Assembly: GCA_017429325.1 (NCBI GenBank)
Contig: JAFRPC010000037.1
Span: forward strand, 1-55,317
Source: Oscillospiraceae bacterium
GTDB taxonomy: Bacteria > Bacillota > Clostridia > Oscillospirales > Oscillospiraceae
Direction: 5' to 3'
Length of the DNA: 55,317 nucleotides
Position numbers and translations under genes: made by a program. The notes below the pieces were generated by a model. The model did no database searches. It was not told where the DNA came from and saw only the letters and a list, made by a program, of their open reading frames with translations. Of the stretch, positions 29,063 through 32,527 are shown in pieces (position 1 is the first letter of the stretch; each line of letters opens with the position of its first letter).

Positions 29063-29149
29063 GAAGCCAGAACAAAGGAAGGGAGCACAAAAGCTCCCGA
29101 CACCTTGCTCAGTTACATAGGCAAACAACAAAGCGGCCAAAGTAGTAGC

Positions 29150-29178
29150 GGCGCACAGTGTGCGCCACACAGTGTGCG
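29150..29178. repeat. GGCGCACAGTGTGCGCC palindrome with partial second copy
   Basis: A 17-bp perfect palindrome is followed by a repeated ACAGTGTGCGCCAC. It lies in the hsp20 leader and resembles the GTAG-headed modules elsewhere (preceded by GTAGC). Confidence 0.6.
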
Positions 29179-29225
29179 CCACCGATGAGGCCCAAAATGT
29201 AAATGAGTGAAAGGAGAAATGACTT

Positions 29226-29675
29226 ATGTTGATGCCCAGAATTTTTGACGATGATTTCTTTGACGATTGGATGCGCTGGCCCGTGAGCCACAGCCTGGCC
29301 GATACCGAAAAGCAGCTCTACGGCAAGCACGCCCCCCATGTGATGCGCACCGACATCCACGAGCACGACGACCACTACGACGTGGACATCGACCTGCCCG
29401 GCTTCAAGAAGGACGAGATCGAGCTGAACCTGGAGAAGGGCTACCTGACTGTCAGCGCCACCAAGGGCCTGGACAAGGACGAGACCGACAAGAAGGGCCG
29501 CGTGATCCGTCAGGAGCGCTACGCCGGGGCCATGCAGCGGAGCTTCTACGTGGGCACCGCCCTCACCGAGGAGGAGATCAAGGCCCGCTTCGAGGACGGC
29601 GTGCTGAAGCTGAACGTCCCCAAGAAGACTGCCCCCAAGCTTCCTGAGAAGCGCACCATCCTGATCGAAGGATAA
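29226..29675 (+). CDS. Hsp20/alpha-crystallin small heat-shock protein
   Basis: ATP-independent holdase chaperone that keeps unfolded proteins soluble. The alpha-crystallin domain runs from about residue 42 (HVMRTDIHEHDDHYDVDIDL) to the GVLKLNVPKK signature near the C-terminus, and the tail RTILIEG carries the I-x-I motif used for oligomer assembly. The length is 149 residues. The ribosome site is AAAGGAG. Control by HrcA is indicated by the CIRCE element at 29021-29047. Confidence 0.95.
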   Translation: MLMPRIFDDDFFDDWMRWPVSHSLADTEKQLYGKHAPHVMRTDIHEHDDHYDVDIDLPGFKKDEIELNLEKGYLTVSATKGLDKDETDKKGRVIRQERYAGAMQRSFYVGTALTEEEIKARFEDGVLKLNVPKKTAPKLPEKRTILIEG

Positions 29676-29690
29676 CGAAATGTCCCGACA

Positions 29691-29728
29691 GCCCCCCGGA
29701 GCCCCGCTCCGGGGGGCCGCTGGTTTTG
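29691..29728 (+). terminator. terminator after hsp20
   Basis: CCCCCCGGAGC and GCTCCGGGGGG form a very stable hairpin, followed by a modest TTTTG tail. Confidence 0.7.
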
Positions 29729-30026
29729 TAGGGTTAACATAATTTTTTCGACAGAAGCAGACATAATATCGCCGCGAAATGAGTACTTATCCGTATAGAA
29801 TGAAAAGCAGACGGGAAAAAACAGGGGCGAAACCGGGAAAACCCGCGAGTTTTCCAAGGTTTTTCACACAATCCACAGGGTTTTCCACCGCTGAAAAATA
29901 TGCAGAGAATATTCGACAAAAACAGAGATGTTTACATAACGCAGTTACATCTTGCCCAATATGGGAAACTGCTCAAAATTTTTCGGGATTTTTCAAAAAA
30001 ATTCCGGGGATTTTCAAAAAAATAGC
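29729..30026. other. gene-free AT-rich intergenic region
   Basis: About 300 bp between the hsp20 terminator and the rpsT promoter. It is clearly AT-richer than the neighbours and contains repeated GGGATTTTTCAAAAAAATTC-like tracts at 29985-30022. No coding region, RNA gene or convincing operator is seen. The tract next to the promoter may act as an UP element. Confidence 0.5.
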
Positions 30027-30055
30027 TTGATTTTATGAACAAAAGCATGTATAAT
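30027..30055 (+). promoter_or_regulatory. rpsT promoter
   Basis: TTGATT (30027-30032), a 17-bp spacer and TATAAT (30050-30055). An A/T-rich tract lies directly upstream. Confidence 0.8.
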
Positions 30056-30113
30056 GTCTCACTGCATGAGTGTCAATCTGATACCCACGATTTCATGTCA
30101 AGGAGGTGTAACT

Positions 30114-30377
30114 GTGCCCAACATCAAGTCCGCTAAGAAGAGAGTCGAGCTTTCCAAGGTCTCCAATGCCAGAAACAAGGCTGGCAAGTCCGCCCTCAAG
30201 ACCGATATCAAGAAGTTCGACGCCGCTGTCCTTGAAGGTAATCGCGAGGCGGCTGACGCAGCCTACAAGACTGCTGTCAAGGCCGTGGACCAGGCTGTGA
30301 ACAAGGGTCTTCTTCACAAGAATACCGCTGCCAGAAAGAAGAGCAGCATGACCCTGAAGCTCAACAAGCTTGCGTAA
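30114..30377 (+). CDS. rpsT: 30S ribosomal protein S20
   Basis: Small-subunit protein that binds 16S rRNA early in assembly. The family start PNIKSAKKRV and the basic helical body are clear, and the end is NTAARKKSSMTLKLNKLA. The length is 87 residues, as usual. The start is a GTG at 30114 with AAGGAGG seven bases upstream; rpsT often uses a non-ATG start, which fits its autoregulation in other bacteria. It is monocistronic, with its own promoter and terminator. Confidence 0.96.
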   Translation: MPNIKSAKKRVELSKVSNARNKAGKSALKTDIKKFDAAVLEGNREAADAAYKTAVKAVDQAVNKGLLHKNTAARKKSSMTLKLNKLA

Positions 30378-30395
30378 TTCGCGTTCGAAAATATT

Positions 30396-30426
30396 CCCTT
30401 CCGGCCCAGACCGGAAGGGGTTTTTT
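30396..30426 (+). terminator. terminator after rpsT
   Basis: CCCTTCCGG-CCCAGA-CCGGAAGGG stem-loop followed by T6. Confidence 0.92.
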
Positions 30427-30431
30427 CGTTT

Positions 30432-30489
30432 TGTGAGAGCAAAAGACGGAAAAAGCTGCTCGCAGCTTTTTCCGTCTTTTGCTCTCACA
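30432..30489. repeat. 58-bp perfect inverted repeat
   Basis: Two 28-bp arms (TGTGAGAGCAAAAGACGG at the outside, GGAAAAAGCTGC at the inside) face each other across a 2-bp centre with no mismatch. It abuts the hairpin array at 30490. No gene lies within it. In RNA it would be an exceptionally stable hairpin. Confidence 0.95.
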
Positions 30490-30572
30490 ATATACGCCGA
30501 AGGCGTATATCACCGCCCGAAGGGCGATATCATGCCGAAGGCATATCACCCGTTCCGCCAGGAACGGATATC
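30490..30572 (-). repeat. left hairpin array: four abutting GATAT-headed units
   Basis: Read on the minus strand, units at 30548-30572, 30532-30547, 30512-30531 and 30490-30511 follow each other without a spare base. Each starts GATAT, then has a GC-rich stem with a TTC or TGGC loop. The stems differ in sequence but keep perfect pairing; several make C-UUCG-G loops in RNA. The array lies downstream of the four-helix-bundle gene, in the same orientation. Confidence 0.9.
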
Positions 30573-30603
30573 ATTCCCACCGCGACACGGCTCTCTTGGG
30601 AGG

Positions 30604-30966
30604 TCAGGATGAACCCTTTTGGTTCTCCTTCGCAGTCCTGCACGATGCGATCAGAAGCCGTTGAATGGTCCCGCGTTCCCGCTCCAGAAGCTGATACTGT
30701 GCCTGGTCGATGCGTCCTGTCCGGGCCAAAAGCTTCAGCCAGAAGCCGGTTTCGTTGGTCTCCTTCAGCGCGATCTCCAGCTTTGAAATAAAGTCCTTTT
30801 TCCCGTGGGCGTACTGCGCCTCGTGGATATTCGCACTGATAGACGTTCCCGCCCGTCCCAATTGGTCGGTCATATAGGCGCTTTTCGGTATGGTGATACT
30901 GTCTACCAGCTCGACGATTTGAACTGCGAATTCAAAAGAAAGGTCCAGCAGTTTGTTGTCGGACAT
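30604..30966 (-). CDS. four-helix-bundle protein (23S rRNA intervening-sequence / Avd-like family)
   Basis: A 120-residue all-helical protein of the S23/IVP family (relatives sit in 23S rRNA intervening sequences, and the Avd subunit of diversity-generating retroelements has the same fold). The conserved block TSISANIHEAQYAHGKKDFISKLEIALKE is present (middle given in part: NIHEAQYAHGKKDF, then ETGFWL). GAGG precedes the ATG by seven bases. There is no rRNA and no reverse transcriptase in the window. Instead the gene stands between two arrays of short hairpins that share a unit (30490-30572 and 31078-31239). Its role is unknown; binding to the structured repeats as RNA or DNA is a hypothesis. 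Confidence 0.88.
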   Translation of the reverse strand: MSDNKLLDLSFEFAVQIVELVDSITIPKSAYMTDQLGRAGTSISANIHEAQYAHGKKDFISKLEIALKETNETGFWLKLLARTGRIDQAQYQLLERERGTIQRLLIASCRTAKENQKGSS

Positions 30967-31077
30967 AGGATCGCCTCACAATTACAAAATCAAACGGTAA
31001 AATCAAACGGGAAAACCAAACGGCAGAGATATTGCCATTCACCGGGACCCGGATGCAAACTTCATAAGCTTGAATGA
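30967..31077 (-). promoter_or_regulatory. leader of the four-helix-bundle gene with direct repeats
   Basis: Contains three imperfect direct repeats on the plus strand (AAAATCAAACGG-like, 30984-31023) at about 13-bp spacing, just upstream of the gene. No convincing sigma-A promoter is seen on the minus strand. The repeats may be a binding site. Confidence 0.35.
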
Positions 31078-31239
31078 TATATCGCTGACGCGATAGGATA
31101 TACGGCCAAGGCCGTATGATATATTTGCTGACTCAAATATGATATGATATCCGTTCCTGCATACGCGCAGCGTATATCATTCGCAAAGCGGATATCATTT
31201 GCGAAGCAAATATCATCCGTTCCGCCAGGAACGGATATC
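31078..31239 (-). repeat. right hairpin array: GATAT-headed units, four perfect plus degenerate ones
   Basis: On the minus strand, abutting units lie at 31215-31239, 31197-31214, 31179-31196 and 31161-31178. The first is the same as the first unit of the left array apart from one base. Three looser hairpins follow (ATATTTG/CAAATAT, ATACGGCC/GGCCGTAT and TATCGC/GCGATA). The array lies upstream of the four-helix-bundle gene. Confidence 0.88.
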
Positions 31240-31242
31240 ATT

Positions 31243-31274
31243 GCAAAAAAGCAGCCTTTCGGCTGCTTTTTTGC
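31243..31274. terminator. bidirectional terminator
   Basis: GCAAAAAAGCAGCC-TTTC-GGCTGCTTTTTTGC, a perfect 14-bp stem with T6 on either strand. It ends the phosphotransferase-like transcript and isolates the hairpin array. Confidence 0.85.
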
Positions 31275-31344
31275 TGTGTAAGAGCGCGCAAAAGTTCACC
31301 AAACCATAGAAAGACCGCCTAAAAGTGCACCAGTTGCACGCCTT

Positions 31345-32337
31345 CTATTTGAACCACCGTTTCAAATGCCGTTTGATACTATCTTCCATGTGGAATAGAT
31401 ACTGTATTCTTTCGACGGTAAGCCGCACCTGTGCAGTCCCCATCTCGCGCTCTGCCTCATCCGCGCATTGTCCGATTGCCCGCTTGATGTTGTATTCAAG
31501 CCATTCGATCCAGGTATATGCCAGCCCAAAAACCGCAGCGTAATCCCTGAATCCGTTATCATAAGCGTCAAGATAACCGTCGAAGAAAGCCTTAATCTTG
31601 GTAAAATCAAGATTGCAGATCGTCGCTCCGGCCCATTGAAGGGAGAGCTGAAGCGCGCTTGAAACGGGATTGCCGCACTCCAAACATTCAAGATCAATTA
31701 CCTTGGGCTGCCCTTCGTCCCACATGACGTTTTTGGGGTCCATATCTTCATCGACAATGCACTCGATCCCGGGAAGCGCGGCGCGAGCCTTGTTCATCTC
31801 GTTTTCGGCATGGATCAGCAGATCCTTGTTTTCTTCTATAACAGTCCCGATGTCGGGATTTTGCCCGAAAGCTGCCTCTGTAAGCCCGCTCCAATCCACG
31901 CAACTAAACTCCGGTTCGGGCTTCGGTATCTGCGCGGGAGCGATGGCATGTATCCTTCCCTGAATGCTTCCCGCTGCTCGGCATTGATCTGCGGAAATGT
32001 TGTAAAAATCTGTTGTTTGCCCATTCTGCCAAGGATAGATGTAGAAATACCCGCCGCCGTATTCTTGCAGTTTGCTGCCATTGATTGTTATTGCCGGCAC
32101 GATAGGAATCCCGGCGTCTTCCAACACCTTTTCCAAAGCGTCTGCCCGTTTGAAGTTCCCAAGGGCGTCAGGGCGTTTCATGATGTTCGGATTGAGGTGT
32201 TTTACCGCGAAGGAGCCGTTTTCTGTGTTGACTTTGTACATCCTGTGCAGATAACCTCCGGATACCGGCGTAATCGGGAGCAGCACCAATCCCAACGCTT
32301 TATCTGTAAACAGTTTTACGATTATTTTCTCTATCAT
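31345..32337 (-). CDS. aminoglycoside-phosphotransferase-fold protein
   Basis: A kinase-like fold protein of 330 residues. The N-lobe has FAVKHLNPNIMKRP (Lys of the ATP site), and the C-lobe has DEDMDPKNVMW followed by PKVIDLECLECGNP, corresponding to the catalytic and Mg-binding loops. The usual His-Arg before the catalytic Asp (HRDxDPKN) is replaced by Asp-Glu, an odd change that could lower or alter activity. Relatives include aminoglycoside and choline/homoserine kinases; the substrate cannot be told and resistance should not be assumed. The gene is alone and AT-richer than the core genes nearby. Confidence 0.75.
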   Translation of the reverse strand: MIEKIIVKLFTDKALGLVLLPITPVSGGYLHRMYKVNTENGSFAVKHLNPNIMKRPDALGNFKRADALEKVLEDAGIPIVPAITINGSKLQEYGGGYFYIYPWQNGQTTDFYNISADQCRAAGSIQGRIHAIAPAQIPKPEPEFSCVDWSGLTEAAFGQNPDIGTVIEENKDLLIHAENEMNKARAALPGIECIVDEDMDPKNVMWDEGQPKVIDLECLECGNPVSSALQLSLQWAGATICNLDFTKIKAFFDGYLDAYDNGFRDYAAVFGLAYTWIEWLEYNIKRAIGQCADEAEREMGTAQVRLTVERIQYLFHMEDSIKRHLKRWFK

Positions 32338-32401
32338 GTCCTCAAGTCCTTATGAAATCAAAACATCTGTTGAGGGAATTATAGCAGGTTCAATCAGATA
32401 T

Positions 32402-32447
32402 GACAACAAAGAAAGCCGCCTTTGTCCTGGTAGACAAAAGCGGCTGC
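32402..32447 (-). terminator. terminator after the tRNA pair
   Basis: On the minus strand AGCCGCTTTTGTC and GACAAAGGCGGCT pair around TACCAG, followed by TTCTTTGTT. Confidence 0.75.
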
Positions 32448-32452
32448 TTTTA

Positions 32453-32527
32453 TGGTGACCCGTACGGGACTCGAACCCATGTTACCGCCGTGAAAGGGCG
32501 GTGTCTTAACCACTTGACCAACGGGCC
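32453..32527 (-). tRNA. tRNA-Glu (UUC anticodon)
   Basis: A 75-nt cloverleaf with encoded CCA: acceptor GGCCCGT/ACGGGTC, anticodon stem CCGCC with loop CTTTCAC (anticodon TTC), and T arm GGGTTCGAGTCCC. The 5' base follows the CCA of the tRNA-Met with no spacer. Confidence 0.95.

What the first reader, a model, noticed from the sequence alone, without database searches (positions are those of the whole stretch)
30432..31274. Four-helix-bundle gene framed by two arrays of abutting GATAT hairpins
Eight hairpin units (four per side) are packed with no spare base, each headed by GATAT on the gene's strand. Stem sequences vary freely while pairing is kept, many loops form C-UUCG-G, and the first units of both arrays are the same apart from one base. 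A 58-bp perfect inverted repeat abuts one array and a 14-bp-stem terminator follows the other. The gene belongs to the S23/IVP/Avd fold, known from rRNA intervening sequences and retroelements, but neither rRNA nor a reverse transcriptase is here. The covariation suggests that the structure itself is selected. This could be a small mobile unit, or a structured RNA with its binding protein.
Basis: partly seen in the sequence, partly recalled or inferred. Interest (0 to 1): 0.85.

Follow-up and report, generated by a model that had tools for sequence, protein, structure and literature searches.

The report
Mobile S23 gene with hairpin-repeat arrays
A small bacterial gene of unknown function sits beside arrays of RNA-like hairpins, and many of its relatives in several phyla sit between matching arrays of short repeats, which suggests that gene and repeats together form an overlooked kind of mobile element.

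Summary
The gene 30604-30966(-) is an S23/IVP four-helix-bundle gene. Both arrays pass Rfam's cut-off for Gut-1 RNA (RF01706), a described motif without known function. In related genomes such genes usually lie beside repeat arrays: 85 of 112 loci, against 15 of 194 control positions and 0 of 17 rpsT loci. Layouts: a compound hairpin array upstream, often after a tRNA; or short tandem repeats upstream with their reverse complement downstream, mostly inside co-directional operons. Similar proteins have similar arrays in different contexts. At speA-speE seven species have a 12-20-nt gap and four carry the element. The inverted-repeat layout also occurs in cyanobacteria, Bacteroidota and a spirochaete. 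Arrays without the gene are common. Best reading: a selfish mobile unit built like a REP/RAYT element, with an S23 protein in place of the transposase. Mobility is inferred from presence/absence; array binding, RNA or DNA action and the copying enzyme are unknown. My searches of an open-licence library found no paper linking S23 genes with these repeats.

The parts
30604..30966 (-). S23/IVP four-helix-bundle protein gene, 120 aa (PF05635, TIGR02436)
   Evidence: PDB 2rld sequence match E 3e-25
31160..31243 (-). upstream array, forward half: CAAT plus four GAT-headed hairpins (31215-31236, 31197-31211, 31179-31193, 31161-31175); Gut-1 match 31169-31243, 53.1 bits (cut-off 50)
   Evidence: unit borders set by eye
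31144..31159 (-). centre of upstream array: CAGGAACGGATATCAT, exact complement of head plus 5' arm of unit 1 (alternative pairing)
31073..31140 (-). upstream array, reversed half: three hairpins followed by ATC-type heads; weak Gut-1 match on the other strand (31072-31150, 27.4 bits, below cut-off)
30488..30576 (-). downstream half array: four forward GAT-headed hairpins; Gut-1 match 30502-30576, 60.8 bits
30431..30490 (.). 29-bp perfect inverted repeat with 2-nt loop, abuts the downstream half array
31243..31274 (-). 14-bp-stem terminator-like hairpin that heads the upstream array; such hairpins head related arrays too (by eye)
30986..31022 (-). roughly 13-nt direct repeats between array and gene (two reported by the tool, a third by eye)
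   Evidence: (D4)
31345..32337 (-). APH-family phosphotransferase gene between tRNA-Glu and the array; not seen at the corresponding place in G016; possible cargo
32412..32449 (-). hairpin with TTTGTCTACC...GACAAA after tRNA-Glu, like left-end hairpins seen by eye in some related elements

Best explanation
The locus is one copy of a mobile, probably selfish unit: an S23/IVP gene together with its own palindromic array (Rfam Gut-1 type), behind a terminator-like hairpin. Shown here: S23/IVP genes lie next to such arrays or between inverted short-repeat arrays far more often than controls; similar proteins have similar arrays in different contexts; a related unit is present in some species and absent in others at one operon junction; array-only copies are common. 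Inferred: the S23 protein, a pentamer in a solved relative, recognises the repeated heads and hairpins of its own element in single-stranded form, more likely in the transcript than in DNA, and marks the element for copying to new gene ends by an enzyme supplied in trans; gene-less arrays are passengers of the same machinery. In operons the inverted arrays would fold the insert out of the message as a stem, much as rRNA intervening sequences do, which would make insertion tolerable.
For: Arrays by any of four criteria: 85 of 112 IVP loci vs 15 of 194 tiled window positions vs 0 of 17 rpsT loci; inverted flanking arrays alone 51 of 112 vs 1 of 194 vs 0 of 17. Flank complementarity score >=40 in 45 of 110 true pairs vs 3 of 531 swapped and 0 of 92 far flanks. 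Array similarity follows protein similarity in different contexts: 86 of 120 pairs at >=65% protein identity vs 37 of 1646 below 45%. Blocks of about 0.6-0.7 kb shared between different sites. speA-speE junction: 7 empty, 4 filled, 3 other of 14. Co-directional insertion: 32 ++, 2 --, 2 +- of the 36 resolved among 51 inverted-array loci. Window IVP groups with L076, L093 and L099 (starred branch), all with GATAT-type heads (by eye). A long-range exact inverted repeat of 10 bp or more in 47 of 57 hairpin arrays, 38 different arm sequences, 0 of 57 shuffles. Inverted short-repeat arrays in 9 of 9 fetched plasmid loci of cyanobacteria, Treponema, Bernardetia and Monoglobus and in Chryseobacterium.
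Against: No transposition was observed. The window's own insertion has only a rough empty site (G016), because flanks diverge within the genus. The window's downstream array is in direct, not inverted, orientation (direct score 78, inverted 32), so the gene is not enclosed in one simple stem. In the upstream layout the array lies between a terminator-like hairpin and a promoter-like sequence (by eye), which argues against an RNA role. 24 of 64 IVP genomes show neither RVT_1 nor Y1_Tnp, so no copying enzyme is identified. Of 30 fetched Gut-1 loci 28 lack the gene nearby. The four filled speA-speE sites have the same type of unit and may descend from one insertion. In 5 of 9 picked pairs IVP identity is below TyrS identity. 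Tiled controls are mostly coding DNA, so part of the contrast may be intergenic against coding; and one rpsT locus, G006, has a gene-less inverted short-repeat array about 250 nt downstream that my criteria do not score. Of G000's three IVP genes one, L002, fails all criteria.
Confidence: 0.7

Rival explanations
1. Passenger model: the arrays are a REP-like repeat family moved by some other enzyme (RAYT/Y1 or another), inserted near terminators and gene ends; the S23 gene is only one of several passenger genes, like the GNAT genes, and has no part in movement.
For: Only 2 of 30 fetched Gut-1 loci have an IVP gene near; a Y1/RAYT-like gene with REP-like palindromes occupies the same speA-speE junction in G001 and G006 (G006's match is below the Pfam cut-off); varied genes follow the IVP gene.
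Against: Array similarity follows the S23 protein; inverted short-repeat arrays lie directly beside the S23 gene in several phyla; Y1_Tnp was found in 33 of 64 IVP genomes and 29 of 84 others.
Confidence: 0.15
2. Regulatory model: Gut-1 is a structured RNA and the S23 protein its RNA-binding partner; together they regulate neighbouring genes or processing, and are not a mobile element.
For: Compensatory pairs, recurrent alternative pairing, original description of Gut-1 as most likely a noncoding RNA (PMC2864571, passages).
Against: Presence/absence in one operon junction, no constant neighbour gene, and different units at the three IVP genes of the window's own genome.
Confidence: 0.1
3. Decayed remnant of an rRNA intervening sequence or of a diversity-generating retroelement.
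For: S23 family; L001's IVP matches PHROG 3206 'Avd protein of DGR', E 8e-12.
Against: Window IVP has no PHROG match; no rRNA in 29149-32460; no RVT_1 match on this contig; the gene is an open ORF with 70-73% identical relatives in the same upstream arrangement.
Confidence: 0.03

Closest known systems
Gut-1 RNA (Rfam RF01706; Weinberg et al. 2010, PMC2864571, passages seen)
   Same: Both window arrays score above the gathering cut-off; same row of headed hairpins.
   Different: The Gut-1 model covers three hairpins of the forward half. Here it is part of a longer array with centre and reversed half, beside an S23/IVP gene. In the passages seen it is listed as human gut only, most likely a noncoding RNA, with no partner named.
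Intervening sequences of 23S rRNA with an S23p ORF, e.g. Coxiella burnetii (Warrier et al. 2016, PMC4990558, passages seen)
   Same: S23-family gene in an element that folds as a stem; 2-3 tandem heptamers (GACAGAT) just upstream of the ORF, with variation between strains.
   Different: These lie in rRNA and are cut out by RNase III. The window element lies beside rpsT, with hairpin arrays and no rRNA.
REPtrons: RAYT (Y1/HUH) genes flanked by REP palindromes (PMC3733652, passages seen)
   Same: Gene flanked by tagged palindromes; gene-less palindromes elsewhere; sites close to gene ends. In the genus studied here a RAYT-like gene uses the same speA-speE gap.
   Different: The protein is an S23 four-helix bundle, not a tyrosine transposase; arrays of several units with variable stems, or tandem short repeats without hairpins.
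Bacterial heptameric repeats: TAACTGA in Beggiatoaceae, cyanobacteria and Bacteroidetes (PMC4679880) and GGGAATC in Xanthomonas/Nostoc (PMC4692102); passages seen
   Same: Tandem 7-mers, mostly intergenic; [quoted passage not shown]
   Different: Neither main text contains 'S23', 'four helix' or 'intervening' (0 occurrences). I did not test those particular repeats.
Avd, accessory protein of diversity-generating retroelements
   Same: Sequence-related to a heptamer-type IVP of this genome (L001, PHROG 3206).
   Different: Works with a reverse transcriptase and template/variable repeats (recalled); no RT is on this contig; the window's own IVP has no PHROG match.

Membership tests
PF05635 / TIGR02436 (S23/IVP four helix bundle) | Score above curated cut-off over the domain | tested here: met
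   78.5 bits vs 33.8; 88.3 vs 24
Gut-1 RNA RF01706 | Covariance-model score above gathering threshold | tested here: met
   60.8 and 53.1 bits vs 50
Gut-1 RNA RF01706 | Expressed as an RNA | not testable with these tools
   No expression data
rRNA intervening sequence (IVS) | Inserted in an rRNA gene | tested here: not met
   No rRNA match in 29149-32460
rRNA intervening sequence (IVS) | Whole element closed by complementary ends | tested here: not met
   In the window the flank arrays are mainly in direct orientation (direct 78, inverted 32); complementary flanks in 51 of 112 IVP loci
rRNA intervening sequence (IVS) | Excised by RNase III | not testable with these tools
   Needs bench work
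REPtron (RAYT plus REP) | Tagged palindromes on both sides of the gene | tested here: met
   GAT/GATAT-tagged hairpins on both sides
REPtron (RAYT plus REP) | Y1 tyrosine transposase gene | tested here: not met
   Gene is PF05635; the genome's one weak Y1_Tnp match (E 2.5e-4, below cut-off) is on contig C31
Diversity-generating retroelement | Reverse transcriptase next to the Avd-like gene | tested here: not met
   Only RVT_1 match of the genome is on contig C2
Diversity-generating retroelement | Template/variable repeat pair with adenine-specific changes | not tested
   -
Mobile genetic element (general) | Filled and empty versions of one site | tested here: inconclusive
   Met for relatives at speA-speE and recN-tyrS; for the window itself only a rough empty site in G016

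The most novel reading that the evidence does not exclude
S23/IVP elements are an unrecognised class of mobile elements, spread over at least four phyla, in which a four-helix-bundle pentamer and its own inverted repeat arrays take the place of a transposase or reverse transcriptase with its ends. They gave rise to Gut-1 RNAs and to many of the heptameric repeat arrays of bacteria, and rRNA intervening sequences are those copies that landed in rRNA genes.
Probability: 0.45. Interest if true: 0.95.

Novelty: new variant of a known kind. Interest (0 to 1): 0.84.

Why it matters
Three unexplained things would come under one roof: a protein family of unknown function (S23/IVP), an RNA family with no known function (Gut-1), and short tandem heptamer repeats in bacterial genomes. 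It gives a direct test for each: does the S23 protein bind the array that accompanies it, and do arrays spread only where the protein is present? It would also suggest what rRNA intervening sequences are and where they come from.

Tried and rejected
A motif for the right end (GACAAATC...GATTTG) looked promising by eye but is present downstream in only 7 of 34 upstream-array loci, 2 of 51 inverted-array loci and 3 of 27 others, so I do not claim it. A first orientation test by longest ORF left most loci unresolved and was replaced by a codon-usage caller trained on nine window ORFs, which still leaves 15 of 51 inverted-array loci unresolved. A resident reverse transcriptase or Y1 transposase as obligate mover: not supported as a general rule, 24 of 64 IVP genomes show neither (incomplete genomes may hide some). 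Target-site duplication: a TA|TA duplication at speA-speE is possible by eye but not shown. Empty site of the window in the genus: of 18 other rpsT loci one (L153) has only 54 nt downstream; in the other 17 I saw by eye no IVP gene and no GATAT array within 520 nt, but flanks differ too much for exact borders. PADLOC gave no match for the IVP or the APH protein. In the 14 control genomes of the genome search PF05635 is found in none and Gut-1 in one, below cut-off.

Selections: 112 IVP loci were examined, mostly the best-scoring of those listed, one of them; weaker listed and unlisted ones were not. 'None' in the array count includes at least 10 loci with arrays visible by eye, so 85 of 112 is conservative; some others, e.g. 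L098 and L107, show none by eye. The 57 arrays were picked by me as hairpin-type, and in some the best inverted repeat may not be the unit-1/centre pair (28 of the 47 also have a local partner). For one search I picked 9 of 41 downstream ORFs, several because they looked like GNATs, so the 7 GNATs are no frequency. For plasmids I fetched 9 of 24 records with a match. The pairs were picked.

Full report
1. What is in the window. The ORF 30604-30966(-), 120 aa, belongs to PF05635 (E 5.1e-22) and TIGR02436 'four helix bundle protein' (E 3.7e-25); its best PDB relative by sequence is 2rld, 5 chains (E 3.1e-25). Two arrays flank it. Read on the gene strand, the upstream array starts right after a 14-bp-stem terminator-like hairpin (31243-31274) and consists of four forward hairpins joined by GAT, a 16-nt centre (31144-31159) and three reversed hairpins joined by ATC-type linkers; the downstream array has four forward hairpins (30488-30576) and runs into a 29-bp perfect inverted repeat (30431-30490). 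The centre is the exact complement of head plus 5' arm of unit 1, so that arm can pair locally or over 66 nt; the minimum-energy fold of 31100-31243 uses the long-range stem.

2. The arrays are a known RNA motif. Rfam's Gut-1 model (RF01706, gathering score 50) matches 30502-30576 with 60.8 bits and 31169-31243 with 53.1 bits, both on the gene strand. Gut-1 was published from metagenomes; the passages I saw list it as 'human gut only' and as most likely a noncoding RNA (PMC2864571). Seven arrays of the window's type (window, L201-L204, L076 and the gene-less L135) show two-sided compensatory changes in 13 of 56 consensus pairs. Over 57 hairpin arrays picked by me, with and without an IVP gene, an exact inverted repeat of at least 10 bp at 45-130 nt is present in 47, with 38 different arm sequences; 0 of 57 mononucleotide shuffles have one; in 28 of the 47 the arm also has a local partner. 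The structure is therefore maintained, by selection or by copying.

3. The association with S23/IVP genes. PF05635 is found in 64 of 148 genomes (the window's and its relatives) and Gut-1 in 61 of 148; both in 53, IVP only 11, Gut-1 only 8, neither 76 (genomes are related to one another, so the test is not independent). I examined 112 IVP loci. Four criteria (upstream flank complementary to downstream flank; upstream flank self-complementary at a distance; three or more headed hairpins upstream; the same downstream) were applied with fixed thresholds: 85 of 112 IVP loci meet at least one, 15 of 194 tiled positions of the window, 0 of 17 rpsT loci. The complementary-flank criterion alone is met by 51 of 112, 1 of 194 and 0 of 17. 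Tiled positions are mostly coding DNA, and G006's rpsT has a gene-less short-repeat array about 250 nt downstream that these criteria do not score. A control free of the coding/intergenic difference: 45 of 110 loci reach score 40 between upstream flank and reversed downstream flank, against 3 of 531 pairs with flanks swapped between loci of different genomes and 0 of 92 pairs of far flanks. At least ten of the 27 loci that failed all criteria show arrays by eye; some show none.

4. Two layouts. (a) Inverted tandem arrays of short units, often about 7 nt, beside the gene on both sides, for example GGGATCA, GGCAATA, GCATAAT, GTCACTA, GCAAATT, or the same with hairpins between the heads. Of 51 such loci 36 have both neighbours resolved: 32 have both in the IVP's direction, 2 both opposite, 2 mixed. 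(b) A compound hairpin array upstream, mostly after a terminator-like hairpin, then a promoter-like sequence, the IVP gene and often another gene (by eye in 27 loci viewed, most of them of this kind). A co-directional tRNA gene lies within 520 nt upstream in 32 of 61 loci outside class (a) and 3 of 51 in it. The window has the array of (b) with an additional forward half array downstream, so it also passes the criterion of (a), just (score 32). Of its closest relatives in named genomes, L201-L204 (70-73% identity; Clostridia and Oscillospiraceae MAGs, goat rectum for two of them), all four have the CAATGATATCCGTTCC array behind a terminator-like hairpin, three have a tRNA match within 200 nt before the array, and none shows a second array in the 330 nt downstream. 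L202's gene has an in-frame stop.

5. Gene and array travel together. For 81 array-bearing loci, pairs in different genomic context share a similar array (score >=30) in 86 of 120 cases at protein identity 65% or more, 84 of 306 at 55-65%, 93 of 1141 at 45-55% and 37 of 1646 below; 27 pairs in the same context were left out. In most pairs compared, blocks shared between different sites run from the region of the terminator-like hairpin to 20-75 nt past the matched part of the gene; some go further, e.g. L061/L067 for 399 nt. On a FastTree tree of 108 proteins (short, many open forks) the two layouts need 13 changes against 25.9 on shuffled labels, 0 of 500 as low, 27 rows unlabelled; the window's IVP is in a starred branch with L076, L093 and L099, all of which have GATAT-type heads by eye. 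In 4 of 9 picked pairs the IVPs are more alike than TyrS from the same genomes, e.g. 88 vs 65% and 88 vs 73%; in 5 they are less alike. Horizontal transfer is thus likely for some.

6. Presence and absence. In the genus, 14 of 23 genomes gave a speE locus. Seven have a gap of 12-20 nt after the stop codon of the upstream decarboxylase-like gene (called speA here, by recall); four (G007, G009, G010, G021) have the IVP element with GGCAATA-type arrays there; the stop codon is TAG at the element's border in these four and TAA (TGA in G018) in the seven, and an AGGAG-type ribosome-binding site is kept; G021 has a further small ORF between the arrays and G010's IVP is cut short (by eye); two (G001, G006) have a Y1/RAYT-like gene with REP-like palindromes and one (G005) palindromes only. 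At recN-tyrS, two of 18 loci (G019, G004) carry an IVP element, G016 has a gene-less inverted heptamer array, and the others have no array by eye or a different upstream neighbour. At the window's own site, G016 has rpsT followed by the tRNA-Glu/tRNA-Met pair with no IVP gene or APH gene between; the other rpsT flanks have diverged. These patterns show gain or loss, not the act of transposition.

7. Breadth. Of 13 loci from named genomes, 12 have usable upstream sequence and all 12 show arrays by eye, including three Bacteroidota MAGs and Chryseobacterium populi (inverted scores 143, 38, 33, 30, 59 for L209-L213; L212 is just under my cut of 32). Of 24 plasmid records with a relative I fetched 9: all 9 have inverted arrays, scores 38-72 (three Nostoc, Dolichospermum, Anabaena, Euhalothece, Treponema, Bernardetia, Monoglobus); the two fecal scaffolds recorded as phage, unverified and unannotated, have upstream hairpin arrays by eye. 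In Anabaena cylindrica the element lies between cas2 and cas1, in Monoglobus between hsdS and hsdR.

8. Arrays without the gene. Of 30 fetched Gut-1 loci (the best of their genomes) 2 have an IVP gene within about 1.5 kb, as far as the contig reaches; of 16 viewed about 10 look like complete arrays, mostly behind terminator-like hairpins. This is the pattern of non-autonomous copies, or of an array family for which the S23 gene is only an occasional passenger; the data do not decide.

9. Mechanism. Shown: association, co-inheritance of gene and array, presence/absence, structure. Inferred: the S23 protein binds its own heads and hairpins. RNA action is favoured by the co-directional insertion, by the relation to Avd (L001's IVP matches PHROG 3206, E 8e-12) and by the rRNA intervening sequences, which in Coxiella are excised by RNase III and carry 2-3 tandem heptamers just upstream of the S23 ORF (PMC4990558, passages). 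DNA action is favoured by class (b), where the array lies between terminator-like hairpin and promoter-like sequence. The copying enzyme is unknown: RVT_1 is found in 26 of 64 IVP genomes and 24 of 84 others, Y1_Tnp in 33 of 64 and 29 of 84, neither in 24 of 64.

10. Known or new. The parts are known; I did not find their connection. Paper searches (open-licence PMC only). Two papers on heptameric repeats contain none of 'S23', 'four helix', 'intervening' in their main text; [quoted passage not shown] Subscription papers could not be searched.

Noticed in passing
window 31345-32337: APH-family phosphotransferase gene between tRNA-Glu and the array, preceded by a TTTGTCTACC hairpin; neither it nor the IVP gene is at the corresponding place in G016 (L149).
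   Followed up: partly
window 30431-30490: The rpsT-side arm of the 29-bp inverted repeat weakly resembles the rpsT flank of G016, as if the repeat arose by fold-back copying of host sequence.
   Followed up: partly
window 30986-31022: Roughly 13-nt direct repeats (AAAATCAAACGG-like) between array and gene, of unknown role.
   Followed up: no
L190 and L193 (speA-speE junction of G001 and G006): Y1/RAYT-like genes with REP-like palindromes occupy the same operon gap that IVP elements use in other species.
   Followed up: partly
L156 (G006, downstream of rpsT): Gene-less inverted array of AATGAATA-type short repeats about 250 nt after rpsT.
   Followed up: no
L007 1-240 (G000:C4): A roughly 95-bp tandem repeat at the contig end next to another IVP gene of the same genome.
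   Followed up: no
L220: IVP element between cas2 and cas1 on an Anabaena cylindrica plasmid.
   Followed up: no
L221: IVP gene with inverted arrays between hsdS and hsdR of a type I restriction operon (Monoglobus); the gene is not in the annotation table shown.
   Followed up: no
L179: Gene-less inverted heptamer array (GTTGAAA...TTTCAAC) between recN and tyrS in G016.
   Followed up: partly
G129:C28 12718-13530 and L059 (G006:C139): Two IVP genes close together on one strand; tandem duplication of the element seems possible.
   Followed up: no
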